Part shown: positions 9,596 to 33,589 of the stretch, one piece after another
Position numbering within the stretch: the first letter of the stretch is position 1
How the letters are laid out: every line of letters starts with the position of its first letter
Translations under genes and position numbers: made by a program
Source of the DNA: a virus
Virus record (IMG/VR): IMGVR_UViG_3300011114_000545
Span: 1 to 45,972 of that record
Length of the DNA: 45,972 nucleotides
Direction: 5' to 3' (one strand)
Notes under the pieces: model-generated
Told to the model about the DNA's origin: nothing
The model's database searches: none
What the model saw: only the letters and a program-made list of their open reading frames with translations

Positions 9596-10067
9596 GCCCG
9601 AGCGCGCCTTCGACCCGGCAGAGATCCGGTTTGGCCATTCGGACGGCCTGGATCGCAAGCCGGTGTTCATGCACGACGGGCGAAAGGGCACCATTGAGAC
9701 GTTCACCGCCCTGAAAGGCCCGGATGTCATCACCCGGCTTTACAAGCGCGGCACGATCACGCCCGGCCAGTTTGATGCTGCCGAGAGTTGGGCCACGGAC
9801 TACGAGCGGGCAGGCATGGGGGTGGCTGTATGCTCGTCCTACGGGGGCGCTGTGGCCGCTTCGAGCGAAGCCGAGCCAGAACGCCGCCGGGCGGCAAAAG
9901 AACGCTTCCGCAAGGCTTACGATGCAATGACGGGCCGGGGCGCGTCTCTGGCATGGGGTGTCATCATCGACAACCACGAGCTGAAGCACTGGCCGCAGTC
10001 CACGGCCTACGTCTCCGAGAGGCTGAGAGAGGCGCTGGACGAACTGGCGGATTTTTACGGCTGTTGA
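9588..10067 (+). CDS. Unknown protein, DUF6456-like
   Basis: This 159-residue protein has a central pattern LYKRGTITPGQFDAAESWATDYERAG that resembles alphaproteobacterial DUF6456 domains (roughly R-x-I-x-x-x-Q-x-x-A-A/G-E-x-x-x-x-D-Y-x-x-A-x-x). The C-terminal half ends in helices (SERLREALDELADFYG). The match is from memory and loose. It closes the replication module; downstream sequence is intergenic, with a small CGAGA-AAA-TCTCG hairpin at 10096-10108. Confidence 0.6.
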   Translation: MSKPERAFDPAEIRFGHSDGLDRKPVFMHDGRKGTIETFTALKGPDVITRLYKRGTITPGQFDAAESWATDYERAGMGVAVCSSYGGAVAASSEAEPERRRAAKERFRKAYDAMTGRGASLAWGVIIDNHELKHWPQSTAYVSERLREALDELADFYGC

Positions 10068-10208
10068 CACGAAGCGCGAGACATGCCTTGCGCGTCGAGA
10101 AAATCTCGGGTAGTCTGCGCGGCAATGGTTTGTATTGCGCCTGATGGCGTGACGAGATGGGCGGGCGATGTATCACTTCACATGCCCAACCACTAGGGAG
10201 TTGTATAC

Positions 10209-10421
10209 TTGACAAAGCACGACACCTCCCCATCTGAGGGCGGGCAGGCCAGCGCAATAACGGATGGGCGATTGGGGGCTGCCGCAAAGGCGGTGCTCAT
10301 GGAGCGCTTTTCTGACGTGCACGGAGACGGGTTATTTCTGACTGAACGCGAGGCTCGCGACATAGCTGGTGAAATCGTGTTGCGCGCCATTGCATGTTTT
10401 CAGAACCCAGATAGCCAATGA
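10209..10421 (+). CDS. Small unknown protein with TTG start
   Basis: This 70-residue protein has an N-terminal low-complexity part and a helical C-terminal part (FLTEREARDIAGEIVLRAI). TTG 10209 is preceded by AGGGAG at a usable distance; no ATG lies near. No family recognised. Confidence 0.5.
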   Translation: MTKHDTSPSEGGQASAITDGRLGAAAKAVLMERFSDVHGDGLFLTEREARDIAGEIVLRAIACFQNPDSQ

Positions 10422-10434
10422 ACTGGCCAAGTAG

Positions 10435-10569
10435 TTGATTGAGATATTCTATGACGAGGCGTTCAAGCGCACCATCAAGACGATGCTGCGGACGCCACCG
10501 AAGCCTCACAAGCTGCCCGTCACTCCGAAGCGACGATCACCAAAATCATCGGAACAGAGCAATGATTGA
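10435..10569 (+). CDS. Possible 44-residue basic protein
   Basis: From TTG 10435 the frame reads a short helical start (IEIFYDEAFKRTIKTML) and a proline- and lysine-rich tail (RTPPKPHKLPVTPKRR), a type I have seen in other phage genomes. No clear ribosome site; the in-frame stop at 10432 fixes the upstream limit. The tail overlaps the 3' end of the opposite-strand frame 10546-10785, so at least one of the two may be spurious. Confidence 0.35.
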   Translation: MIEIFYDEAFKRTIKTMLRTPPKPHKLPVTPKRRSPKSSEQSND

Positions 10570-10785
10570 TATTGCGATAACGATGATCGCGGCAGCCGTT
10601 GTGATCGTGCTCCTTTTCAACATTTTCTCGCTGATCTCGTTGGCCTCTCGTGCTCGTTCAGCGGCGGCCCAAGCCGCATTGTTGGCTTCGCTTGCCAAGG
10701 CGCGCGCCTCAGCATTGGAGGCAATGGCCAGCGCCGCGTCGCGCTGACGCAACCATTCTTGCGCTAGGCTGAGTTTACTCACCAT
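10546..10785 (-). CDS. Tail-anchored coiled-coil membrane protein, opposite strand
   Basis: Read on the minus strand this is a 79-residue protein with a charged heptad-like helix (LAQEWLRQRDAALAIAS, AERAREANEISEKML) and one C-terminal hydrophobic helix (TITTAAAIIVIAISIIALF). The charged-helix-then-anchor design looks natural. The competing plus-strand frame (10562-10747) reads as a hydrophobic start followed by an Ala/Ser/Arg/Leu mix, the usual shadow of such a helix. It lacks a clear ribosome site and would be the only minus gene inside the plus arm. Confidence 0.45.
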   Translation of the reverse strand: MVSKLSLAQEWLRQRDAALAIASNAEARALASEANNAAWAAAERAREANEISEKMLKRSTITTAAAIIVIAISIIALFR

Positions 10786-10850
10786 ATGAAAAAAACCGCG
10801 GGCTTGTGTCGTCCAGGATACGCCGCCCGCGCCGTCCGGAAGAGAAGGCG

Positions 10851-11243
10851 ATGACAGAGCCACCCAAGAGTGAAGCGGCTAGCGTCACAATGCGAGAGTA
10901 TGTGGACGCCAAGATCGAGGGCGTTAGCGCCAAGAACGATGCTCGTTTTAACGAGGTAATATCGAAGTTGGACACGCTGCAATCCGACGTGAGCCGGATT
11001 CCCTCCCTGTGGGGCTTTCTTGGGCTGGCGTTGGCAACAGTCGTCACTGGTATTGGAATACTTTTGGGGCTTCTTTCTTATGCGGGCGACAGGTTCGACG
11101 GTGGAATGCAGGCGGCTTCTGTATCTGTCTATCAGGCAAACGAAGCACTTCAGGTCGCTGGGGATAACGCCAAACAGGTAAAGGCGTTAAACTCCAAGAT
11201 GGACACAATCATCCAGATTTTGGGTGAAAAGGCGCAAGAATGA
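10851..11243 (+). CDS. Coiled-coil membrane protein
   Basis: This 130-residue protein has a soluble N-terminal helix (VTMREYVDAKIEGVSAKND) with further heptads (ARFNEVISKLDTLQSDVS), one transmembrane segment at about 61-80 (WGFLGLALATVVTGIGILLG), then a second helical region. AGAAGG lies upstream of the ATG. The pattern of helix plus membrane segment is common in small phage membrane proteins such as XhlA-like holin partners; position away from the lysis genes makes that uncertain. Confidence 0.65.
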   Translation: MTEPPKSEAASVTMREYVDAKIEGVSAKNDARFNEVISKLDTLQSDVSRIPSLWGFLGLALATVVTGIGILLGLLSYAGDRFDGGMQAASVSVYQANEALQVAGDNAKQVKALNSKMDTIIQILGEKAQE

Positions 11244-11335
11244 CCGGGAATAGCGCCCGGCCACCACGTCATTCCCCCTCGGGAACATCGGCCCCCAGCC
11301 CGGCCACAACCTGACCTGACATTCCCCAACGGGAA
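11244..11335 (+). promoter_or_regulatory. Cluster of short hairpins before the terminase genes
   Basis: Three small inverted repeats lie in a row: CCGGG/CCCGG (11244-11260), TTCCC/GGGAA (11272-11285) and TTCCC/GGGAA (11322-11335). The last two share the frame ATTCCCC-n-CGGGAACA, so they are a direct repeat of a hairpin. Such a cluster could be a packaging-initiation (pac or cos) site or a control element. No gene fits in 11244-11450. Confidence 0.35.
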
Positions 11336-11339
11336 CACC

Positions 11340-11371
11340 GCGCCTCGTTCCACACCGGAGCGGGGCGCTTT
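11340..11371 (+). terminator. Rho-independent terminator-like hairpin
   Basis: GCGCCTCGTTCC (11340-11351) pairs over 12 positions (two G-U) with GGAGCGGGGCGC (11357-11368) around a 5-base loop, followed by TTT. The T-run is short. It would end messages from the replication module before the packaging genes. Confidence 0.6.
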
Positions 11372-11450
11372 GCATTCCATCCGAGCCCGAGCGGCCCGCT
11401 ACAACCACACAGCCCAGAGCGGTGACAGGCTCCGAGGCTCGGAAACCCAC

Positions 11451-12047
11451 ATGCCACAACCAACCAAACCCGGCGTAGATTGGCAGGACATCGAGCGCCG
11501 GTATCGTCAAGGCGAGACACCGTCGGCCATATCAAGGGCATGTGACGTGACCCGGCAGGCCATCGACAAGCGCGTCAAACGCGAGGGGTGGACAAGGGTT
11601 GCCGACACCCCATCGGGACGGTTGCAACTTGCATTGGCCGCAACCCCTCGCCAGACACCGCCGCTCGCACGGCATCATGGACGGTCGGACGCCGCCGCGA
11701 TTGACGTGGTGAAGCTGCTTGAGGCCGGCGCGACACTGAGCCAGGCAGCGGCGGGTATCGGCATGACGCCCTCGGCGTTCAAACACTGGCGGGACGCTGA
11801 CGCGGATCTCGACACAGCCGTGAGGGAGGCATGTGCCGCATTCGGCCGGTCCCAGGTCGGTAACGTCGTGGCAGCGGCAGACAGGGGCGACGCAAGGGCA
11901 GCCCAATGGCTGTTGGAGAAGCACCCCGGCACCCGTGAGGAATTCGGCGGCGGCTCAGGCAGCGGAGGCCCGACTCTCGTGGTCCACATCAACGTGCCCC
12001 GCAACATGGCCGATATGGCCACGATCATGGAGGGCGAGACACTGTGA
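11451..12047 (+). CDS. terS: Terminase small subunit-like protein
   Basis: This 198-residue protein has an N-terminal HTH (IERRYRQGETPSAISRAC..TRQAIDKRVKREGW, about 13-47) and a second HTH-like unit (GATLSQAAAGIGMTPSAFKHW). A helical segment (GDARAAQWLLEKHPGTREEF) recalls the C-terminal part of small terminases. It should bind phage DNA at the packaging start and hand it to the large subunit. Position and coupling support the call, although an unrelated ADP-ribosyltransferase-like gene stands before the large terminase. The ribosome site is weak. Confidence 0.7.
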   Translation: MPQPTKPGVDWQDIERRYRQGETPSAISRACDVTRQAIDKRVKREGWTRVADTPSGRLQLALAATPRQTPPLARHHGRSDAAAIDVVKLLEAGATLSQAAAGIGMTPSAFKHWRDADADLDTAVREACAAFGRSQVGNVVAAADRGDARAAQWLLEKHPGTREEFGGGSGSGGPTLVVHINVPRNMADMATIMEGETL

Positions 12048-12250
12048 CCGCCGTCATCACCAAGGCCACACAGGCCGGCACGGTCTACTGGTACGCCGAC
12101 AAGCAGGCATGGATCGCCGACGCCGACCTAGCATCGTGGTATCCCCTGCAAGCCGCAGAGACGATAGCCCGACTGACATGGCCCAACGACCTCGACGTAG
12201 CCGTGGAAAGCCACTGGGCCGTGAGACCCAACGCAACGGTGAACGCATGA
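12044..12250 (+). CDS. Small unknown protein
   Basis: This 68-residue protein starts at GTG with GTGA coupling to the terminase small subunit. It is rich in Trp and Tyr (TVYWYADKQAWIADADLASWYPL). No family recognised. Confidence 0.55.
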   Translation: MTAVITKATQAGTVYWYADKQAWIADADLASWYPLQAAETIARLTWPNDLDVAVESHWAVRPNATVNA

Positions 12251-12303
12251 CACCAGAGGAACGCGAAGCCCGCCGCGCCGCCCGGCAATCAGCATCTTTA
12301 TAG
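12247..12303 (+). CDS. Possible 18-residue micro-ORF
   Basis: ATG 12247 overlaps the preceding stop (ATGA). The product MTPEEREARRAARQSASL would be a short basic helix. Only the coupling supports it. Confidence 0.3.
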   Translation: MTPEEREARRAARQSASL

Positions 12304-12779
12304 GCTGACGCTGGAAGCCCTGGCGAGGTGGATGCCGACCTCAATGGCTGGCGACGTGCCTACGCTTCCGCATGACACGAAGAAGGGGGAATAGACGCGC
12401 GCCACCGGCCGCCCGCCCGCCGTGCCACGGCTGCGAGTTTCCTGACATGCACTATACCACTAGCCGACCATTGCCCCGAAACGCACGAAACAGGCGCACT
12501 GTCAGTTAAGTACATGATATCATTGAATAACCTAGTTTCCATAATGCATGTTATGCGACTTTGAGCGCACGGAAGGGGAACGGCGAGGGGGTGGCCTTGG
12601 TGTTCGGCGCCGGCCTTTGTGAGAGCGCGAACGTACACGCCCAACCGCGCCCGAAGGTTCACCGACCTTTGCCGATCTGGAAATAAACCAACCCAAGGTT
12701 GCTGCCTCGGGCTCTGCGGTGCGTTGAAACGCCGTGTTTTACCTACCGCTAGTAGAAAAACCGCCCAAAGGTTGCTGAT
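12304..12779. other. 476-bp gene-free region with AT-rich core
   Basis: No credible gene is seen on either strand; the long opposite frame across it is a shadow of the next gene. Bases about 12500-12560 are strikingly AT-rich for this genome and contain CATAA-TGCATG-TTATG (12540-12555). Three direct repeats of CC(C/A)(A/G)AAGGTT type lie at 12651-12659, 12691-12700 and 12764-12773, the last two extended by GCTG; the last one also acts as ribosome site for the gene at 12780. The region may hold a late promoter, a packaging site or an inserted-gene scar. Confidence 0.6.
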
Positions 12780-14144
12780 ATGTCCCTTCCACAAGCGATG
12801 TTGCGGGAGCACATGCGGTCTCGGCGGATTGCGGAGACGCTGCGTCAGGCTGGGCCGTTGCGTTCTGGCGGCCCTGGGCCTTACGAGGCTCGGCAGTCGG
12901 ACAGGGGGCCGATGCAGGAGAGCATGGCGGCTCCTGTCGATCCGGTGCTGTCGTTCTACGACGACTATTGGAACGGCCTTGTCGGGAAGGGGCAGGGTTC
13001 GGGCTGGTTCGGGATGAACACGGTTTCGCAGGAGTTGATGCGGTTGCAGGGGGTGCAGGACCAATTCGGCGGTCTGTCGCCTGAATACGCGCAGGCGTTG
13101 GCCGAGAGCCCTGTCGGGCCCGGCTTCGGCGTGATGGGGACGGTTGGGGATGTGGCGAAGGGCATCCGGGCGTTCCACGGCTCGCCGCACACGTTCGATG
13201 CGTTCGACATGTCGCGTATCGGCACGGGCGAGGGCGCGCAGGCTTACGGGCATGGCTTGTACTTCGCTGAGAATGAGGGGGTGGCGCGAGGCTACCGCGA
13301 CCGCATTGCCGGGGCCGAATGGGTGGACAAGCGCGGCCTCGCGATTTCGTCAAATACAATATCCAACGAGGTGATGGAGCAGGCCCGGAAAGACGGGCTG
13401 GATATCCTTGAGGCAAACGACGCCGCTGGAATGTGGTCAACCGTGGTCCGAGACGGTGACGGTGCGGCAAACTTCCCCGGTTACGAAAGCGTCCGAACGG
13501 TGCTTGACAGGCTCGGGGTGCGGCTGCGTGAAAAGGGCTCCATGTACGAAGTCCGCATCAACGCCAACCCCGACGACTTCCTCGATTGGGACAAGCCGCT
13601 GAGTGAGCAGTCGCAGCGCGTTGCGGATGTGTTGACTCAGCTTGAGGACAGAATGGGCAGCGGATCCGCGACGATAGGCGGCGAGCGTGTCATTGATCTG
13701 GCGCGGTCTCACGGTGCGACTGGCATGGTGCCTGTTAGGCTCGGGACTCTTATGCGCGACGGCGCGACGGTCGACGAAGCCCTCAACGCCATGGTGGGGA
13801 TGAGCAATAACGCTGATTGGCAGAAGCAGATCGCAATGCTTCGCGGAAAGATCACCGGAAGCGTCGATGTAAAGCGCGTGTTTGGGCCGGATTGGCGTGG
13901 GGCAGATATTGCCAAGCGTAACTTGAATGTGAAACCGGAGGAGGTGGCCGCCGCGTTGCGAGACGCAGGCGTTCCCGGCATCAAGTACCTTGACGCCGGT
14001 TCCCGTGGCGCAGGCGACGGCTCCCGCAACTACGTTGTCTTTGACGACAAGCTCATTGAAATCCTCCGGCGCTATGGCCTCCTGCCTCCCGTGGCGGTCG
14101 GGGCCGGTCTGCTGTCGGGCAACGACGCGGAGGCGGGGCAGTAG
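12780..14144 (+). CDS. ADP-ribosyltransferase-like protein between terminase genes
   Basis: This 454-residue protein carries FHGSPHTFDAFDMSRIG (from about residue 126) and GEGAQAYGHGLYFAENE, the pattern of ADP-ribosyltransferase-fold domains seen in large phage polyvalent proteins (His in HGS, Tyr in GLYFA). The C-terminus holds the conserved ending GVPGIKYLDAGSRGAGDGSR followed by NYVVFDDKLIEILRRYG. The expected catalytic Glu cannot be pinned by eye; YEVRINANPDDFLDW is a candidate region. The N-terminal 120 residues are glycine- and proline-rich. It is probably delivered with the DNA or made early to modify a host protein, but its place between small and large terminase is unusual. Confidence 0.75.
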   Translation: MSLPQAMLREHMRSRRIAETLRQAGPLRSGGPGPYEARQSDRGPMQESMAAPVDPVLSFYDDYWNGLVGKGQGSGWFGMNTVSQELMRLQGVQDQFGGLSPEYAQALAESPVGPGFGVMGTVGDVAKGIRAFHGSPHTFDAFDMSRIGTGEGAQAYGHGLYFAENEGVARGYRDRIAGAEWVDKRGLAISSNTISNEVMEQARKDGLDILEANDAAGMWSTVVRDGDGAANFPGYESVRTVLDRLGVRLREKGSMYEVRINANPDDFLDWDKPLSEQSQRVADVLTQLEDRMGSGSATIGGERVIDLARSHGATGMVPVRLGTLMRDGATVDEALNAMVGMSNNADWQKQIAMLRGKITGSVDVKRVFGPDWRGADIAKRNLNVKPEEVAAALRDAGVPGIKYLDAGSRGAGDGSRNYVVFDDKLIEILRRYGLLPPVAVGAGLLSGNDAEAGQ

Positions 14145-15659
14145 GTGCAAGCCGTCAGTCTCGACTACACGCCCCAACCGCGGCAGGCGCTGCTTCATGC
14201 CACTCCGGCGAGGCTGATCCTCTACGGGGGTGCTGTTGGGGGCGGGAAGTCCCATGCGCTGAGATGGGAGGCGATATCGTGGGCCTTGCAGGTTCCTGGC
14301 ATCCAGGTCTACCTCTTCCGCCGGACTTTGGGCGAGCTGGAAGACAACCACGTCCGTCAGTTGAAGGACAGCCTGAGCCCTCTCCATGGGCACGTCGGAT
14401 ACAACGAGACGCGCAAGACGTTCGAGTTCAAGAACGGCTCAACGATCCGGCTCTGTTATTGCGAGAAGGAGCATGACGTTGAGCGGTATCAGGGTGCCGA
14501 GATCCACGTCCTGCTGGTGGATGAGGCGGGGCACCTGACGGAGTACCAGTTGAATTATCTGGTCGGCCGAAACCGTCTTGGCGGGTTTGCCGAGAAGGTG
14601 GCGGAGGAATTGCGGCACATGCTGCCGAGGGCGGTGTTCTCGTCCAATCCCGGTGGTCCGGGGCATCAGTTTTTGAAACAGTGTTTCGTGGAGCCTGCCG
14701 AGGAGGGGGTGGAGTTCCGCAATCAGCGATACCGCGATCCGCGCGACCCGAACGATCCGGGCAGGTTGTCGATCTACATCCCGGCGCGGATGAAGGACAA
14801 CAAGTTCATTGATTCCGACTACGGCGCTTCTCTTGCCGGTCTTCCGCCAGAGCTTGCACGGGCTCTGAGGGACGGCGATTGGGATGCGGTTGTCGGGCAG
14901 GCGCTTCACACGCTGGCCCGTGAAAAGCACATGCTGCGCCCCTTCACGCCTCCGAGGCACTGGACGCGGTTCATGTCTCTCGATTGGGGCACGGCCAAAC
15001 CGTTTTCGGTGGGCTGGTACACGGTATCCGATGGGGGGATTCTGGAGGGCAAGGAGGCGTGGCCCGAGCGGTGGCTGCCTCCGGGTGCGGTGATCCGTTA
15101 CGCCGAATGGTACGGCTGGAACGGTAACGCGGACCAGGGTGCAAGGCTGGATTCCAGAACCGTCGCCAAGCGTATTCTGGAGATCGAGAAGGAACGTGGG
15201 GAACCGCCGATTGACTACCGCATCGGCGACACGGCCATGTGGGCCGTTCACGACGGCATCTCGATTGCGCACAACATGATGGAAGCAACCGAGGGGCGGT
15301 TGCAGTTGACCCCGGCGAAGAAGTCGCGGGAGCAGAATTACAACGAAATCCTGTGCCGTTTGGCAGGTTCGGAGAATTACCTGACAGATGGCAGGGACGG
15401 CGATGCGCCGATGTTCTACGCGACGGCCGATTGTACGCACTTCTGGCGTACGGTGCCGACGCTGATCCTCGACGGGACGAACCCCGAGAAGGGGCCGGAT
15501 TCGTCGCAGGAGGACCATGTATTCGACGATGTGTCGTACGCGCTCCGGTCCCGTCCGTTCATGACGACGGAATTGGACCGCTACATGGCTGCGCACGGCA
15601 ATGAGATGAGAGAGGCGAAACGTGGCGGAAGATCGAGCGACCCCTACGCCACCCGTTAG
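14145..15659 (+). CDS. terL: Terminase large subunit
   Basis: This 504-residue packaging motor has Walker A LYGGAVGGGKS (about 26-36), Walker B LLVDEAGHL (about 123-131), a coupling-type segment FSSNPGGPGH and an RNase H-like nuclease domain opening with MSLDWGTAKP (Asp near 277), with further acidic residues at RIGDTAMW and DHVFDDVSYAL. It starts at GTG immediately after the TAG of the ADP-ribosyltransferase-like gene. It hydrolyses ATP to fill the prohead and cuts the concatemer. Start site and length are normal for the family. Confidence 0.93.
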   Translation: MQAVSLDYTPQPRQALLHATPARLILYGGAVGGGKSHALRWEAISWALQVPGIQVYLFRRTLGELEDNHVRQLKDSLSPLHGHVGYNETRKTFEFKNGSTIRLCYCEKEHDVERYQGAEIHVLLVDEAGHLTEYQLNYLVGRNRLGGFAEKVAEELRHMLPRAVFSSNPGGPGHQFLKQCFVEPAEEGVEFRNQRYRDPRDPNDPGRLSIYIPARMKDNKFIDSDYGASLAGLPPELARALRDGDWDAVVGQALHTLAREKHMLRPFTPPRHWTRFMSLDWGTAKPFSVGWYTVSDGGILEGKEAWPERWLPPGAVIRYAEWYGWNGNADQGARLDSRTVAKRILEIEKERGEPPIDYRIGDTAMWAVHDGISIAHNMMEATEGRLQLTPAKKSREQNYNEILCRLAGSENYLTDGRDGDAPMFYATADCTHFWRTVPTLILDGTNPEKGPDSSQEDHVFDDVSYALRSRPFMTTELDRYMAAHGNEMREAKRGGRSSDPYATR

Positions 15660-16362
15660 CCTCTACACCCGGCATCCCAATTCACAGATGGTGATGTCCT
15701 TCTTCGCGAAGGGCTGCGGGGGTCGTTTGGCCCCCGTCGGGGCGGGGGGCGATCGGATCTCATGCTACGGTGTTCTGCGGGGTTGTATGGCGGCCATGAA
15801 GGCAGCGGACGCCTTCTGGTACATCGACCATGGGGCCTTTGACCGGGGCAGGTACTACCGCGTCGTAAGGGACGGGTTCTGGATATCTTCGGAGCCCGAC
15901 ACGGACGACGAGCGGTTCCGCAAGCTGAACGTGACGTTGAAGGACTGGCGCACGACGGGCGATCACATCGTCATCGTGCCGCCCTCGCAATTTGCCGAAC
16001 TGGCCCACGATCTGGTGGGCTGGCTCGACGCCGTTTCCATGACGCTGGCGCGCTACACAGACCGGCCGATTGTCGTCCACACGAAGGCATCGAAGGAGCC
16101 CCTGTCGCACGTTTTGCAGGGCGCGTGGTGCCTAGTGACCGACCATTCCAACGCCGCGATAGATGCTCTGACCGAGGGCATCCCGGCGATTATGACGAAC
16201 CCGGCCCGAAGGCTGGGCGACCTGAGAGACATCGAGAACCCGCCCATGAGGCGGGATTTTTTTTGCCGCCTCGCCAACCAGCAATGGACGTTGGACGAGA
16301 TGGCTTCCGGAGAGTGTTGGAGATCACATGAGAGCAGCGATCCCGGTTTACATCGGGTATGA
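15622..16362 (+). CDS. GT-B-type glycosyltransferase-like protein
   Basis: This 246-residue protein opens the sugar cassette. The segment CLVTDHSNAAIDALTEGIPA matches the donor-binding C-terminal element of GT-B enzymes and capsule-type transferases (S-N-x-x-x-E/D-A-L-x-x-G-I/K-P). RDFFCRLANQQWTLDEM is the usual C-terminal ending of such phage proteins, so I take the frame as intact to 16362. The start GTG 15622 overlaps the large terminase by 38 bases. A terminator-like stem with eight T residues lies inside the gene at 16239-16264, so expression of its end and of downstream genes may be tuned or variable. Confidence 0.65.
   Translation: MAEDRATPTPPVSLYTRHPNSQMVMSFFAKGCGGRLAPVGAGGDRISCYGVLRGCMAAMKAADAFWYIDHGAFDRGRYYRVVRDGFWISSEPDTDDERFRKLNVTLKDWRTTGDHIVIVPPSQFAELAHDLVGWLDAVSMTLARYTDRPIVVHTKASKEPLSHVLQGAWCLVTDHSNAAIDALTEGIPAIMTNPARRLGDLRDIENPPMRRDFFCRLANQQWTLDEMASGECWRSHESSDPGLHRV
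16239..16264 (+). terminator. Intragenic terminator-like hairpin with T8
   Basis: CCCGCC (16239-16244), loop CATGA and GGCGGG (16250-16255) form a perfect 6-bp GC stem, followed by one A and eight T residues (16257-16264). This is a canonical intrinsic terminator shape, yet it sits within an open frame about 100 bases from its end. It may attenuate the cassette, and the T8 run is a likely slippage site. Confidence 0.6.
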
Positions 16363-17041
16363 CCGTCGAGAAGAAGAAGCCTGGGACGTGTGCAAACACT
16401 CCCTCCTGCGCCATACGTCAATCCCCGTCCACCCGATCAAGCTGAAGGACACGACCCTTCGTGAGATCGGGATTTACGGGCGGGACTGGCAGGAGCGTGA
16501 CGGCATACGTTACGACACGCTCGACCGAAAACCGTTCTCGACGGACTTTGCCTTCACGCGGTTCCTGTCACCGATCCTCGCGCTTTATCAGGGTTGGTCG
16601 CTGTTCATGGACTGCGACATGCTCTGGCGGGCTGACATCGCGGAACTGATGGCGCTCGCCGATCCGAAATACGCGGTGATGTGCGTCAAGCATGATTACA
16701 CGCCGAAAGAGGGCGTGAAGATGGACGGCCAGCGGCAGGAGACCTACCGCCGCAAGAACTGGTCGTCGTTCATGCTGTTCAACTGCGAGCATCCTGCCAA
16801 CCGTTTCCTCACGCCCCGCGCGGTGAGTACCGAACCCGGCGCATGGCTTCACGGCATGGGCTGGCTGAAGGACGAGGATATCGGCGGGCTGCCGGAAGCG
16901 TGGAACTGGCTCTGCGGGTGGTCGTCCCCGGACATCGACCCGAAGGTGGTCCACTACACGCTCGGAGGTCCGTGGTTCGACGATTACCGCAACGTCCCCT
17001 TCGCCGGGGAGTGGTTGCAGGAACGCGTGAGGATGCCGTGA
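16328..17041 (+). CDS. GT-A-fold (GT8-like) glycosyltransferase
   Basis: This 237-residue protein has IPVYIGYDRREEEAWDVCKH at the N-terminus, characteristic of GT8-type enzymes, and the metal-binding DxD in LFMDCDMLWRADI (about 96-108). VVHYTLGGPWFDDY near the C-terminus matches the family's HxxG region. It should transfer a sugar from a nucleotide donor with Mn or Mg. GGAGATC precedes the ATG. It overlaps both neighbours and is one of five linked sugar- or methyl-transfer genes between large terminase and portal. Confidence 0.82.
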   Translation: MRAAIPVYIGYDRREEEAWDVCKHSLLRHTSIPVHPIKLKDTTLREIGIYGRDWQERDGIRYDTLDRKPFSTDFAFTRFLSPILALYQGWSLFMDCDMLWRADIAELMALADPKYAVMCVKHDYTPKEGVKMDGQRQETYRRKNWSSFMLFNCEHPANRFLTPRAVSTEPGAWLHGMGWLKDEDIGGLPEAWNWLCGWSSPDIDPKVVHYTLGGPWFDDYRNVPFAGEWLQERVRMP

Positions 17042-17634
17042 TCGTCAACGGCTGGATGCTTCCGAAGGACGACACGCACTTCCCGAAATACGCCGAGGCC
17101 GGAGACTACCAGCCGACCCTCATGGGCATGGCGCTGAATTACGTTACCGACTTCACAGCGGCGGTCGATGCCGGGGGCCACATCGGGTTCATGTCGCGCA
17201 GGCTGACACGCTCGTTCGAGAGGGTCTGGTCATTCGAGCCGGTGCCGGAGAACTTCGACTGTCTGCGGATCAACGCACCCAAGGCAACGGCAATCCGCGT
17301 GGCGCTAGGTAACGACCGCGGCGAGATCGAGATGGCCTGTCCTGCGGTCGGGAATTCCGGCTCATGGGAAAGGGGTGATGGGATCACGGTCCCGCTGATG
17401 AAGCTGGACGACTACCCGATTTCCTCCGTGGGCTTCGTCAAGATCGACGTGCAGGGAATGGAAACGGACGTTCTGCTCGGCGGAGAAATGCTGATCCGCA
17501 AGAGCCGGCCGGTGATCGCGGTTGAGGTCAAGATGCGTGGCGAAACCAACCACGCCGTCGAGGCTCTGCTGCTGTCGTGGGGTGCTCGTATCGCCGCGCG
17601 GATCGGCAAGGATATCGTGGCGGTCTGGCAATGA
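17038..17634 (+). CDS. FkbM-family methyltransferase
   Basis: This 198-residue protein is GTGA-coupled to the gene before it. It has AAVDAGGHIGFMSRRL (SAM-binding motif I), VWSFEPVPENFDCLR (motif II with acidic residue) and SVGFVKIDVQGMETDVLLG, the signature of FkbM-type enzymes. The family O-methylates sugars and small molecules, so the likely substrate is a glycan built by the neighbouring transferases. Length is slightly short of the usual range but all core motifs are present. Confidence 0.85.
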   Translation: MIVNGWMLPKDDTHFPKYAEAGDYQPTLMGMALNYVTDFTAAVDAGGHIGFMSRRLTRSFERVWSFEPVPENFDCLRINAPKATAIRVALGNDRGEIEMACPAVGNSGSWERGDGITVPLMKLDDYPISSVGFVKIDVQGMETDVLLGGEMLIRKSRPVIAVEVKMRGETNHAVEALLLSWGARIAARIGKDIVAVWQ

Positions 17635-18362
17635 TCCGGGTCTGCACGTCGTTTTCCACGAGACAGTATGAGGTCTACGGCAAGCGGTTCCTCGATACCT
17701 ATCGGGAGTTCTGCGACAAGCCGTTGACGGTCTTTCACGAGGGTCAGGATCTACCCGATTGGGTGGAGGCGAGAGACCTTCGCGAAGATGCGGACCTGCT
17801 GGCGTTCCTGAAACTCTGGGGCGAGAAGCCCTTTGCGCATGGCTTGGTGAGTGGCGGTCTCAACTACCGTTTCCAGGCGGTGAAGTTCGCCAAGAAGGTC
17901 TTTGCCTACACGAACCATCCTCCATTGACCCCGGAAGATGTCTGGGTCTGGATCGACGCCGACGTGGAGTTTTTCGCGCCGGTCACGGAGGAATGGTGGT
18001 CCCGTTCCTGTTCGTCAGGTTTCGTCGGGTCGTACATCGGCCGGCGGAAGTGGAGCCATCCCGAGTGTGGGTTCATGTCGTTCAGCGGCCGGTACAACGG
18101 CGCTGAGATCCTGTCGGAGATACGCCGCATCTACACGTCCGGCCTGCTGTTCGGTTTGCCCGAGTGGCACGACAGCTATGTGTTCGGCGTCGTTCAAAGG
18201 GCGTGGGATTTGAGGGGCCGGATTCGGTTCTTCAACCTCGCCGAAACCGTCGAGGAAACAGGCGATGTCCCGCACCCGTGGCCGGACACCGTGCTTGGAG
18301 AGGTCTGCCGCCACCACAAGGGGCCGGTAGCCAAGAGAGAAACCTATGGAGAGATCGCGTGA
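17631..18362 (+). CDS. GT-A-like glycosyltransferase
   Basis: This 243-residue protein is ATGA-coupled to the FkbM gene. The central DVWVWIDADVEFFAPV carries a DxD-like DAD motif, and PEWHDSYVFGVVQRAW supplies the downstream acidic segment seen in many GT-A enzymes. The N-terminus (MIRVCTSFSTRQYEVYGKRFLD) fits the nucleotide-binding strand. Family number cannot be set by eye. It is distinct from the GT8-like gene two positions upstream. Confidence 0.7.
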   Translation: MIRVCTSFSTRQYEVYGKRFLDTYREFCDKPLTVFHEGQDLPDWVEARDLREDADLLAFLKLWGEKPFAHGLVSGGLNYRFQAVKFAKKVFAYTNHPPLTPEDVWVWIDADVEFFAPVTEEWWSRSCSSGFVGSYIGRRKWSHPECGFMSFSGRYNGAEILSEIRRIYTSGLLFGLPEWHDSYVFGVVQRAWDLRGRIRFFNLAETVEETGDVPHPWPDTVLGEVCRHHKGPVAKRETYGEIA

Positions 18363-19771
18363 ACCGTTACGAACAGCTTTTGCAGATCATCGAGCAGACC
18401 AAGCCCCGCACCATCATCGAGGTCGGAACATGGAACGGCCTTCGCGCCGTTCAGATGGCGACCGAGGCTCTGAGGTTCGGCCCCGTCCATTACGTCGGAC
18501 TGGACCTGTTCGAGGAAGCCACGGCGGAAACCGACGCCGCCGAATTGAACGTCAAGGCCCACTGCACGATTGACGAGGTTCACGCCCGCCTGACCGACCT
18601 CCAGGCACAGGACACGCGGTTCACGTTCACGCTCTGGGGCGGCAACACGAACGACACGCTGCCCGAGGTGATGAAGCTCGAAGCGATGGAAGGCCCGTCG
18701 CTGGCGTTCATCGACGGCGGGCACTCGGTCGAGACGATCCGCAACGATTATGAACACCTGAAGGGGTGCGATTTCGTCGTTTTGGATGACCTGTACCAGC
18801 CAGACGACAGGGGCTGTCCCGACGTTGACAAGTACGGCTGCAACCACCTGCTGGAGAGCATCGGCACCCTCGGTGTTGACTGGTTCATTCTGCCCGTAGG
18901 CGATCCCGTGGTGACCGGCGGGCGCGTTCACATGGCGACGGTGGGGTTCAATCCGCCCATCGCCGTGACGAAGAAGCTGGTTGTCAAGACGAAAAACAGC
19001 GTCGATGACGGCGTGATCCTCGCTCATGTTTCGTCGGCGCTGTCAAGGGGGCTGCCGGAGATGCAAGCCTGCCGTCGCCACGGTCGCGAGGCCGTGGTGG
19101 TGTCCGGCGGCCCGACGTTCAAGTTGCATGTGGCCGAAATCAAGGCGCGTCAGGACGCCGGAGCCTATGTTTTCTGCGTCAAGACCTCGCACGACTGGTT
19201 GATTGCCAACGGCGTGGTTCCGTTCGGCTGCATCCTGCTCGACCCGCGCCCGCATGTGCTGGACTTCGTGTCTGATCCGCACCCCGACGTGACCTATTTC
19301 GTAGCCTCTCAGGTGCATCCGGCGACGCTGGACCGGCTACAGGAGCGCGGATCGAAGATCGTCCTCTACCACGCCCTTGTTGGGGCTGGTGAGGCCAACC
19401 TTCTGGCCGGAAAGAGCCTTGTTGTCGGCGGGTCGACCTCCGCCACGCGGGGCATTTCGATGCTGAACGCCCTCGGGTTCGCGATTTTCGACCTCTACGG
19501 CTACGACTCGTGCTTCCAGTCGAAGCCGGGCGACGAATACACGTTCGAGGGTGACGGAAAGCGGCCCATCGACGTGAAAATCAACGGTCGGGCCTTCTGG
19601 ACGACCCCGGAACTGATCGCACAGGCCCAGGATTTCGAGAAACTGGCCGAAATGGCCGTTGGCGGCAACGCCATCGAGCTTGAGGTCCATGGCGACGGCG
19701 TGATCCCGCATATCTGGTCGAAAATGAGGCCGAACAAGGCCGATTTTGGGGTTGAGTATGGCATTTCCTAA
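18359..19771 (+). CDS. Fused SAM methyltransferase and MptE/DUF115-like protein
   Basis: This 470-residue protein looks like two domains. Residues 1 to about 195 are a class I methyltransferase (TIIEVGTWNGLRAVQMA as motif I, SLAFIDGGHSVETIRNDYEH of the Methyltransf_24 type). Residues about 225-460 resemble the MptE-like/DUF115 domain (VVVSGGPTFKLHVAEIKA, YVFCVKTSHDWLIANGV, GCILLDPRP, VVGGSTSATRGISMLNALG), the core of Maf proteins that attach nonulosonic sugars to flagellin. GTG start with GGAGA upstream, GTGA-coupled. A Maf-like transfer to a virion protein is an attractive but unproved role. It overlaps the portal start by 14 bases. Confidence 0.75.
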   Translation: MNRYEQLLQIIEQTKPRTIIEVGTWNGLRAVQMATEALRFGPVHYVGLDLFEEATAETDAAELNVKAHCTIDEVHARLTDLQAQDTRFTFTLWGGNTNDTLPEVMKLEAMEGPSLAFIDGGHSVETIRNDYEHLKGCDFVVLDDLYQPDDRGCPDVDKYGCNHLLESIGTLGVDWFILPVGDPVVTGGRVHMATVGFNPPIAVTKKLVVKTKNSVDDGVILAHVSSALSRGLPEMQACRRHGREAVVVSGGPTFKLHVAEIKARQDAGAYVFCVKTSHDWLIANGVVPFGCILLDPRPHVLDFVSDPHPDVTYFVASQVHPATLDRLQERGSKIVLYHALVGAGEANLLAGKSLVVGGSTSATRGISMLNALGFAIFDLYGYDSCFQSKPGDEYTFEGDGKRPIDVKINGRAFWTTPELIAQAQDFEKLAEMAVGGNAIELEVHGDGVIPHIWSKMRPNKADFGVEYGIS

Positions 19772-30866: not shown

Positions 30867-31556
30867 ATGACAGCAGCCAACCGCATGACGGCTCTCGGTG
30901 TCGTCAACGAGGTACAGCGCAAGCTCGGCCTCGACCCCACGACCGACTTCAGCGGCAAACAGTCGCGGATGCTGATGCAGCTTCTGAACGAGGTGCTGGC
31001 CGAGTGCCACGACTACGGCAACTGGCCGCAGTACTACGAAGAGGTCACGGTCACCGCGTCGTCGTCCGTCAGGCAGTATTCCGTCCGCGTGTCGGGGCGG
31101 GAGATCCACAATCTCATCGAGGTTTCGTTCAACAACGCCGCCGGTGAATTGCAGAACCGGACCGTGGAGGAAATCCGCCGCCTTCGCAGGACGGGATCGT
31201 CCACGGGGCGACCGTCTCAGTATTGCCTCATCGACACTGACGCATCGGGCAACCCTCGGATCGAGGTCTATCCCCAGCCCGGCACGACACAGAACAACCA
31301 GACGTTCAACATCGCGGTCTATGTGCGCGAGCCACTGTTGACGACCAGCGACACGGCGAAGGAACTCAAGTTCCCCGGCAACCTTCTCGTGGCGGGCCTC
31401 TACGCCAAGGCCATGCTGGACGAGAGCGGTGGCGAGCAGTCGACGCAGTTTCAGACGGCTTACGCGGAATACCAGAGGATGACCCGTGAGGCGCAGAACC
31501 GTTTCGTCGGCGATACCGAGGACGTGTTCCGTATCAATCCGGGGGGGCGTCGTTGA
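30867..31556 (+). CDS. Head-tail adaptor, P22 gp4-like
   Basis: This 229-residue helical protein (VVNEVQRKLGLDPTTDFSGK, LMQLLNEVLAECHDYGNWPQ) with a central beta region matches the adaptor or tail-accessory proteins that bind the portal ring in short-tailed phages. Its position directly before the stabilisation protein supports the call. Confidence 0.7.
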   Translation: MTAANRMTALGVVNEVQRKLGLDPTTDFSGKQSRMLMQLLNEVLAECHDYGNWPQYYEEVTVTASSSVRQYSVRVSGREIHNLIEVSFNNAAGELQNRTVEEIRRLRRTGSSTGRPSQYCLIDTDASGNPRIEVYPQPGTTQNNQTFNIAVYVREPLLTTSDTAKELKFPGNLLVAGLYAKAMLDESGGEQSTQFQTAYAEYQRMTREAQNRFVGDTEDVFRINPGGRR

Positions 31557-33589
31557 CCACGTTTGAAATCACCTACGACATCGCCCCCAAGGGCGTCGCA
31601 ACCTCGTTCACCGAGAGCGAGATTCCGCCGTCCTACGCCGGGCGGTTCCGTAATCGGTACATCAACCGTGCTGGCGGTGCGTCGAAACGTGAAGGCATCC
31701 AGCAGCTTGGCGCAACGGTGACGGGTACGCCCAATCTTACCGGGATGCACGAATGGATCGACAAGATCGGCGCGGCGACGCTCTATGCCTCGGGTGCGGG
31801 GAATATCTATTCCTACAACGGATCGACCTACACGCTCGTTCACTCGTTCGCCTCGACGGGCCGCATCCGCTCGACGCAGTTCGGCAATTACCTGATGTTC
31901 TGGAACGGTGTGGACCGCAACGTCTACACGAAGGACGGCACGACGTTCCACGAACTGATTGCCCTGATGCGGTCGGGCAAGGTCACGTCCGGTTCCAACG
32001 CGAACGTCGTGAAGGACGCCAGCGTGACGGACTGGACGGCAGGCACTCCTGTCACGATCAACGATCTGGTCTACTATCCCGGCCTTGACGCCTATGGCCT
32101 CGTCACAGCCGTCTCCGCGTCCGGTCTGGCTACAACGGCGGTATCTGCCGCCGCGACGGGTTTGGGCCACTCCACGGCCGCCGTGAGTGCTGCCGAGCGG
32201 TATCAGATCATCGACCTTGTGGAACTCAACATCATCTCGGATGGCACCACGGACGACAACGTGGCAATCGCGGGAACGGGCACGTCCACGACGGTCATTG
32301 CCGTCTCGGGCGTGACGTTCTCGGGTACCGAGATCAGGGTTGGCGATTTCGTCAGCAACACCACCCGCGCGGCGGTGACGGATGTCACAAGCGTCTCGGC
32401 AAACATTAACGTCTCGACGGTCGCAGGGCAGGTCGCGGGTGACAGCCTCGTGTTCCTGAAGTCGGCCATGCCGATCTCGACGTGGATACATACGCACTTC
32501 GGACGGGCCTATCACATCGACGCCCGCGACCAGCGCAAGGTTCGCATTTCGGCCATTGACGACCCGCAGGACATGAGTTCGTCCACGGGGACTATTGACA
32601 GCATCACCTTTGCCACGGGGTCGTTGCAGGGCAAGGGCGACATCCTCCTGACGCTCGATTCCTTCCAGCGTTATTTCGTGATGGCGGGCGAGTCGCAGGT
32701 TTACATCTACGCGGGGACCGACCCCATCGGCACCACGCCGGATTTCGAGCCGGTGTCCCTGATGCCGCAGGGGTGTGTGTCCGCTGACGGGCTTCTGAAC
32801 ATCGGCAACGCGCTCCTGTTCGTATCGCGCGACGGCATCCAGGCAATCATGCAATCGCAGTCGGAGACGCAGCTTCAGCGCGAGGGATTGACGGGGCAGA
32901 TCAATGAAACGCTTCGCGACGAACTCGACAACGCGGCGGCGGCGGACATCCAGTTGTTCCACTACCGTCAGAGGTCGTGGGTTATCCTGAAAGTGGGATC
33001 TCAGTTCCACGTCATCAACTACGCCTCGATGCAGGAGGATTCCACGGCCCTGTTCGGTGCCATGTCCCTGACGGACTTCGACGGCAAGTTCTGTCGCCAG
33101 AACGCCTATCTCGCACGCAGGAACGATGACCTCGTATGCGCGGGCGGTGGGGGGAAGGTCTACATCTTCGACAAGGGCGATTATGCCGACGATGGCGAGG
33201 TCTATTCGACGGAATACCAGACGGGTTGGTTGACGATGGGCGGCGCGAGGAAGGACGGTCGCGAGCGCCCCGACGTGAACCAGAAGAAGCTGCTTTACAT
33301 GAAGCCGCTTTTCGAGGCGGGCGCTGCGATCACTTACAGCATTCGCGCCGAAGGTGGATACGACGCCGAGAGTACCGACACGGCCTCCGTTCCCGTCTCC
33401 GGCGGTACGCAGGCCGTGGGGCTGGCGACGATCCCGTTCACCATCGGAGGTTCGTCCGTCATCAACACGAAACTCCCGCTGCGGACGAATGGCGAGGTGC
33501 ATCGCATCACCGTCTCCACGCAGGACGATCTTGGGCCGGACACGCTGGGGCGGTACACGCTCTATGTGTCCCGCTCGGGCTTTAGATAA
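31553..33589 (+). CDS. Packaged-DNA stabilisation (P22 gp10-like) protein
   Basis: This 678-residue protein starts with a TTG (TTGA overlap). It is a long beta-rich chain with repeated strand units (TLYASGAGNIYSYNGSTYTL, NALLFVSRDGIQAIMQS, GGGKVYIFDKGDYAD), the pattern of the beta-propeller proteins that seal the P22 tail tube. The region about 200-300 is serine-, threonine- and alanine-rich and may be an inserted domain. The C-terminal domain is beta-sandwich-like (VHRITVSTQDDLGPDT). Confidence 0.75.
   Translation: MTTFEITYDIAPKGVATSFTESEIPPSYAGRFRNRYINRAGGASKREGIQQLGATVTGTPNLTGMHEWIDKIGAATLYASGAGNIYSYNGSTYTLVHSFASTGRIRSTQFGNYLMFWNGVDRNVYTKDGTTFHELIALMRSGKVTSGSNANVVKDASVTDWTAGTPVTINDLVYYPGLDAYGLVTAVSASGLATTAVSAAATGLGHSTAAVSAAERYQIIDLVELNIISDGTTDDNVAIAGTGTSTTVIAVSGVTFSGTEIRVGDFVSNTTRAAVTDVTSVSANINVSTVAGQVAGDSLVFLKSAMPISTWIHTHFGRAYHIDARDQRKVRISAIDDPQDMSSSTGTIDSITFATGSLQGKGDILLTLDSFQRYFVMAGESQVYIYAGTDPIGTTPDFEPVSLMPQGCVSADGLLNIGNALLFVSRDGIQAIMQSQSETQLQREGLTGQINETLRDELDNAAAADIQLFHYRQRSWVILKVGSQFHVINYASMQEDSTALFGAMSLTDFDGKFCRQNAYLARRNDDLVCAGGGGKVYIFDKGDYADDGEVYSTEYQTGWLTMGGARKDGRERPDVNQKKLLYMKPLFEAGAAITYSIRAEGGYDAESTDTASVPVSGGTQAVGLATIPFTIGGSSVINTKLPLRTNGEVHRITVSTQDDLGPDTLGRYTLYVSRSGFR

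What the first reader, a model, noticed from the sequence alone, without database searches (positions are those of the whole stretch)
12780..14144. ADP-ribosyltransferase-like protein between the terminase subunits
A 454-residue protein with HGSPHTFDAFD, AYGHGLYFAE and the conserved ending IKYLDAGSRGAG...NYVVFDD sits where only terminase genes are expected. Related domains are usually parts of giant ejected polyvalent proteins. A stand-alone gene beside packaging genes could be a virion-borne effector or could modify the packaging machinery or the host. A 476-bp gene-free tract lies in front of it.
Basis: partly seen in the sequence, partly recalled or inferred. Interest (0 to 1): 0.62.

Follow-up and report, generated by a model that had tools for sequence, protein, structure and literature searches.

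The report
Stand-alone phage ADP-ribosyltransferase-like gene
A phage gene wedged between its two DNA-packaging genes encodes an enzyme-like protein of a known family, probably carried inside the virus particle and injected into the host; it is a new member of a known kind, with the expected catalytic glutamate replaced by asparagine.

Summary
The 454-aa gene (12780-14144) is real and lies between a TerS-like gene and TerL. Residues ~125-435 form an ADP-ribosyltransferase (ART) domain. AlphaFold models match the solved pre-ejectosome protein of cyanophage A-4L (Z 10.9), tankyrase PARP domains and diphtheria toxin, and 62 of 63 aligned family members hit Pfam ART-PolyVal (the window protein itself falls below its cut-off). 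(1) Stand-alone copies are common: 50 of 66 sampled loci are at most 650 aa, many beside TerL, portal, head-closure or internal-virion genes. That context, and head packaging, were already predicted for phage ARTs (Iyer 2022). (2) The triad is H133-Y161-N417, not His-Tyr-Glu: the position matching the PARP/diphtheria Glu is Asn (Cys, Gly or Ala in distant members) and never Glu or Asp in 139 sequences. (3) A role in packaging is unlikely: the two long contigs with the most similar terminases lack the gene. Best explanation: a virion-packaged, ejected ART-fold effector acting on the new host. Fold and context are shown; packaging, ejection, NAD use and target are inferred. The non-canonical third residue is the part worth testing.

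The parts
12780..14144 (+). ART-like gene, 454 aa, ATG start, TAG stop
13140..14096 (+). ART domain modelled alone (residues 121-439); two mostly helical insertions (about 190-245 and 279-395) inside it
   Evidence: AlphaFold2 mean pLDDT 81.3, pTM 0.72; VIA Z 10.9 to 9k3a_B, 8.9 to tankyrase-2
13176..13178 (+). His133 codon (HGSP, strand 1): equivalent of the PARP catalytic His
   Evidence: H in 139 of 139 sequences; model residue 13 aligns with A-4L H1426
13230..13232 (+). Glu151 codon (GTGEGAQ loop), almost invariant
   Evidence: E in 138 of 139
13260..13262 (+). Tyr161 codon (GHGLYFAE, strand 2): equivalent of PARP1 Tyr896; Tyr172 is likewise invariant
   Evidence: 139 of 139; hhalign match to bacterial PARP over YGHGLYFAENEGVARGY
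14028..14030 (+). Asn417 codon (NYVVFDD, late strand) at the position of the canonical catalytic Glu
   Evidence: N 62/62 in viral loci; N 62, C 13, G 1, A 1 in 77 genome-contig sequences; never E or D; position from VIA range ends
14076..14141 (+). C-terminal Gly/Ala-rich hydrophobic tail (GLLPPVAVGAGLLSGNDAEAGQ), a recurring feature of the family, low-confidence in the model
14129..14133 (+). GGAGG, a Shine-Dalgarno-like site for TerL inside the last codons of the ART gene; the ART stop (14142-14144) directly abuts the TerL GTG
   Evidence: sequence
11451..12047 (+). Terminase small subunit-like gene
   Evidence: phrog_1206 E 6.5e-9; relative in L088
12304..12779 (+). 476-bp tract without a conserved gene; holds a 20-nt imperfect direct repeat (12685, 12758)
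14145..15659 (+). Terminase large subunit
   Evidence: phrog_979 E 6e-36, phrog_2 E 4e-31; 58% identical TerL in L087

Best explanation
The gene encodes a stand-alone effector of the polyvalent-type ART family. It is probably made late, with the packaging and head genes, co-packaged into the capsid, and ejected into the host with the DNA, where its ART domain uses NAD+ to mono-ADP-ribosylate a host macromolecule. Shown here: the gene, the ART fold (in predicted models), the conserved His and two Tyr, the Asn at the Glu position, and the virion/packaging gene context of relatives. Supported by a solved structural precedent: an ART-like domain inside the capsid in a pre-ejectosome protein. Inferred: packaging, ejection, NAD use, catalysis without the canonical Glu (by substrate assistance or via the near-invariant Glu151), and the host target.
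For: Fold: the domain model matches cyanophage A-4L pre-ejectosome chain 9k3a_B (Z 10.9, 149 residues), tankyrases (Z up to 8.9) and diphtheria toxin (Z 8.7). The full-length model gave MbcT, NatT and AcrIF11, all ART-fold proteins by my own knowledge. BFVD has 27 matches at E <= 1e-3, several named ART-PolyVal-like. Family: 62 of 63 aligned members hit PF18760, best 4e-25. Constraint: H133, Y161 and Y172 invariant in 139 sequences. Context: TerL-ART-portal in L016, L034, L038, L039, L043; ART next to portal, head-closure or virion-structural genes in others. 9k3a_B is A-4L gp27, with the HGT His at 1426 and GSGTYF at 1444. PMC9503650 draws the same head-packaging conclusion for phage ARTs near terminase and portal. 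Co-expression: the ART stop abuts the TerL start. Codon use matches TerL and portal, so the gene is long resident.
Against: No virion proteomics or NAD assay was found for this protein. The position of the catalytic Glu is Asn, and some PARPs lacking that Glu are inactive (own knowledge). The gene is accessory: absent from the 51.6-kb and 44.8-kb contigs carrying similar TerLs. It lies far from this phage's own predicted internal-virion gene (31553-33589).
Confidence: 0.6

Rival explanations
1. A pseudo-ART: a virion-internal protein that keeps the ART fold, perhaps binding NAD(H) or ADP-ribose, but has lost transferase activity and acts as a structural or binding part of the ejection apparatus.
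For: No Glu or Asp at the catalytic Glu position in 139 sequences. The corresponding residue in the A-4L pre-ejectosome ART-like domain is Thr. The PARP13 ART domain (ZC3HAV1, inactive by own knowledge) is among the structural matches.
Against: H133, Y161, Y172 and Glu151 are near-invariant across phyla, which is unusual for a dead enzyme. PARPs without Glu can be active mono-ARTs (own knowledge).
Confidence: 0.22
2. An intracellular, non-packaged effector made late in infection, modifying host proteins or countering an NAD-based defence, its position beside TerL being incidental.
For: Accessory in this terminase lineage. PMC9503650 notes as an alternative that such ARTs could counter immunity aimed at terminase or portal.
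Against: Relatives repeatedly neighbour portal, head-closure and internal virion genes in unrelated phages. The A-4L homologous domain is inside the capsid.
Confidence: 0.15
3. An ART that modifies the packaging machinery itself (TerL, TerS or portal).
For: Position between TerS and TerL only.
Against: The 55% and 41% identical TerLs in L088 and L089 lie in contigs with no ART, and most relatives lie next to other genes.
Confidence: 0.03

Closest known systems
ART-PolyVal (Pfam PF18760) / polyvalent-protein ARTs of the Tox-ART-HYD2 group (Iyer et al. 2017, PMC5512222)
   Same: HGS...G.GLYF motifs; 62 of 63 family members match the profile; many loci are true polyvalent proteins with the same domain
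   Different: Stand-alone 454-aa protein; large helical insertions; the window protein scores below the curated cut-off (24.1 vs 31.2 bits); Asn at the Glu position
Cyanophage A-4L gp27, pre-ejectosome protein (PDB 9k3a chain B)
   Same: Best structural match (Z 10.9 over 149 residues); H and Y motifs in the same places
   Different: A 1717-aa capsid-internal protein; no detectable sequence relation in the PDB profile search; Thr rather than Asn at the third position
Phage T4 Alt
   Same: Phage ART; Alt is packaged in the head and injected, the behaviour proposed here
   Different: R-S-E clade with a different active site (PMC5512222); packaging of the window protein untested
Sulfitobacter phage phiGT1 gp5 (QLB38217.1)
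   Same: Stand-alone 387-aa relative, 31% identical over 74% of the query, located between portal and scaffold genes
   Different: Annotated hypothetical; sits after the portal, not between TerS and TerL

Membership tests
ADP-ribosyltransferase superfamily (H-Y-[EDQ] side) | ART fold | tested here: met
   best PDB matches are the A-4L pre-ejectosome protein, tankyrases, diphtheria toxin, MbcT, NatT and AcrIF11; predicted models only
ADP-ribosyltransferase superfamily (H-Y-[EDQ] side) | Catalytic His in strand 1 and Tyr in strand 2 | tested here: met
   H133 and Y161 in 139 of 139 sequences; range starts align H133 with A-4L H1426
Canonical H-Y-E ARTs (PARP1, diphtheria toxin) | Glu in the late core strand | tested here: not met
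   Asn417, never E or D in 139 sequences; equivalence rests on aligned range ends and motif order, not on coordinates
Tox-ART-HYD2 (as defined in PMC5512222) | Asp in strand 5 | tested here: inconclusive
   D405 and D422 are both well conserved (62/62 viral; 59/77 genome each); which one the authors mean could not be settled
Pfam PF18760 ART-PolyVal | Whole-protein score at or above the curated cut-off of 31.2 bits | tested here: not met
   24.1 bits, residues 131-174 only; but 62 of 63 aligned members match at E <= 1e-3, best 4e-25
Polyvalent proteins | Two or more distinct domains in one polypeptide | tested here: not met
   Only the ART domain is recognisable in the 454 aa
Head-packaged phage ARTs (T4 Alt-like behaviour) | Protein present in the virion and injected | not testable with these tools
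   Only context and a structural precedent are available
ADP-ribosyltransferases | NAD+ dependent transfer activity | not testable with these tools
   Needs an enzyme assay

The most novel reading that the evidence does not exclude
A very widespread phage family of PARP-like H-Y-N proteins that either catalyse ADP-ribosylation without the canonical acidic residue, possibly using the near-invariant Glu151 of the donor-loop region, or have become NAD-binding parts of the genome-ejection apparatus.
Probability: 0.35. Interest if true: 0.55.

Novelty: new member of a known kind. Interest (0 to 1): 0.33.

Why it matters
Phage ARTs are predicted to be among the first proteins delivered into a host, yet few beyond T4 Alt have been tested. 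This gene is a compact, single-domain representative of a very common family, so it is a practical choice for testing packaging, NAD chemistry and the effect of the missing glutamate.

Tried and rejected
Plain Foldseek with the full-length model gave no PDB match at E < 0.1, probably because the insertions and disordered N-terminus dilute the domain; the domain alone resolved this. A PDB sequence-profile search gave nothing even at E 10. hhalign against bacterial PARPs aligned only the GxGLYFAE helix segment (P about 1e-4) and could not place the third motif. No PF00644 PARP was found in 299 genomes of the phylum of G006 (the genome of L113, Amaricoccus); bacterial PARPs came from the phylum of G308 (the genome of L110, an Anaerolineales bacterium). 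Ntox47 (weak, residues 355-423) was rejected: below cut-off and explained by the ART C-terminal strands. Special regulatory or RNA content in the 476-bp tract was not supported: no Rfam hit, promoter and terminator counts only modestly above shuffled levels over 10000-16500 (3 against 1.3; 10 against 5.4), and a TerS-TerL gap exists in L088 without the ART. Recent acquisition judged from codon use was rejected: ART codon use is typical of the window. The A-4L structure paper was not held, so only its PDB entry is used.

Full report
Observation. The ORF 12780-14144 (+) is present exactly as described, with all three quoted motifs. The only in-frame extension upstream is 8 codons. It lies between a TerS-like gene (11451-12047, phrog_1206) and TerL (14145-15659, phrog_979 and phrog_2). 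Its stop codon abuts the TerL GTG, and a GGAGG site for TerL lies within its last codons, so the two are probably translated from one message. Its codon use is as typical of the window as that of TerL and portal.

Family. tblastn-confirmed relatives: 217 stretches in IMG/VR, 109 in genome contigs across many phyla, and 5 records among 50,697 phage records. Of 66 non-redundant viral loci, 50 have ORFs of at most 650 aa, while others are fusions of about 700 to 3000 aa. The domain is followed by a Gly/Ala-rich hydrophobic tail in many members.

Context. By cluster annotation, 22 of the 50 short loci have a TerL, portal, head-closure or internal-virion/virion-structural gene within two genes; three more have an endolysin. 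L012 (DNA ejection protein) and L017 (portal-like) add two by direct scan. Only about 20 neighbour proteins were annotated, so this is a lower bound. TerL-ART-portal order recurs in L016, L034, L038, L039 and L043. The exact TerS-ART-TerL order was seen only in the window. In the terminase lineage of the window, L088 (51.6-kb contig, TerL 55% identical) and L089 (44.8 kb, 41%) have no ART anywhere, though the contigs may be incomplete. L088 has a TerS-TerL gap holding only small ORFs. The gene is therefore accessory and not part of the packaging machine.

Fold. The full-length model has mean pLDDT 72.7, with the ART core mostly above 85 and a poorly predicted N-terminus. VIA-align put five ART-fold chains on top: A-4L pre-ejectosome, MbcT, NatT (two entries) and AcrIF11 (the ART nature of the last three is own knowledge). 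The domain alone (residues 121-439, 124 sequences) reached pLDDT 81.3 and pTM 0.72. It matches 9k3a_B at Z 10.9 (rmsd 4.7, 149 residues), about 40 tankyrase entries at Z 8.2-8.9, diphtheria toxin at 8.7 and PARP13 (ZC3HAV1) at 8.5. These Z values are middling in absolute terms, but every row below the top one is a known ART. BFVD gave 27 matches at E <= 1e-3, several named ART-PolyVal-like.

Active site. In 139 sequences H133, Y161 and Y172 are invariant and E151 is kept in 138. Position 417 is N in all 62 viral sequences and N 62, C 13, G 1, A 1 in 77 genome-contig sequences. Range ends place H133 on TNKS2 1031 and TNKS1 1184, and N417 on 1138 and 1291; these are the catalytic His and Glu of the tankyrases (residue roles from own knowledge). 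For A-4L gp27 the same arithmetic gives H1426 and T1587, and the sequence there (HGT..., GSGTYF, TTLVINPDAV) fits. For diphtheria toxin the C-terminal end is off by three residues. The viral set was partly selected with the NYVVFDDK peptide, which biases towards N. The annotated phages not selected that way (L082-L085) also have N, and the genome scan used three patterns.

Mechanism. The most likely reading is a capsid-packaged, ejected ART-fold effector acting early on the host. Iyer et al. 2022 (PMC9503650) made this inference for phage ARTs in general from terminase/portal neighbourhoods, and Iyer et al. 2017 (PMC5512222) described the polyvalent ART family and assigned it an H-Y-D active site. 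Whether the H-Y-N proteins here are active is open; a pseudo-ART in the ejection apparatus is the main rival.

Verdict. This is a new member of a known kind in an already predicted setting. The non-canonical third residue and the structural link to a solved pre-ejectosome are the informative additions.

Noticed in passing
window 15622-19771: Between TerL and portal lies a block of glycosyltransferase-like, FkbM methyltransferase and MptE-like/methyltransferase genes; similar genes follow TerL in L087 and L088, so a sugar- or methyl-modifying cassette is conserved in this lineage.
   Followed up: partly
window 12685-12704 and 12758-12777: 20-nt imperfect direct repeat (85%) ending just before the ART start codon; function unknown, could be chance.
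   Followed up: no
window 12044-12250; L088 4139-4339: A 66-68 aa ORF overlaps the TerS stop codon by 4 nt in both phages, but the sequences show no clear similarity.
   Followed up: no
L186 20116-25269 (Anabaena phage A-4L gp27): The pre-ejectosome protein deposited as 'tail protein' (PDB 9k3a_B) carries an ART-like domain at about 1418-1609 with HGT and GSGTYF motifs; the GenBank annotation does not mention it.
   Followed up: partly
L066 5315-8830, L067 5923-10053: Two ART domains in a single polypeptide.
   Followed up: no
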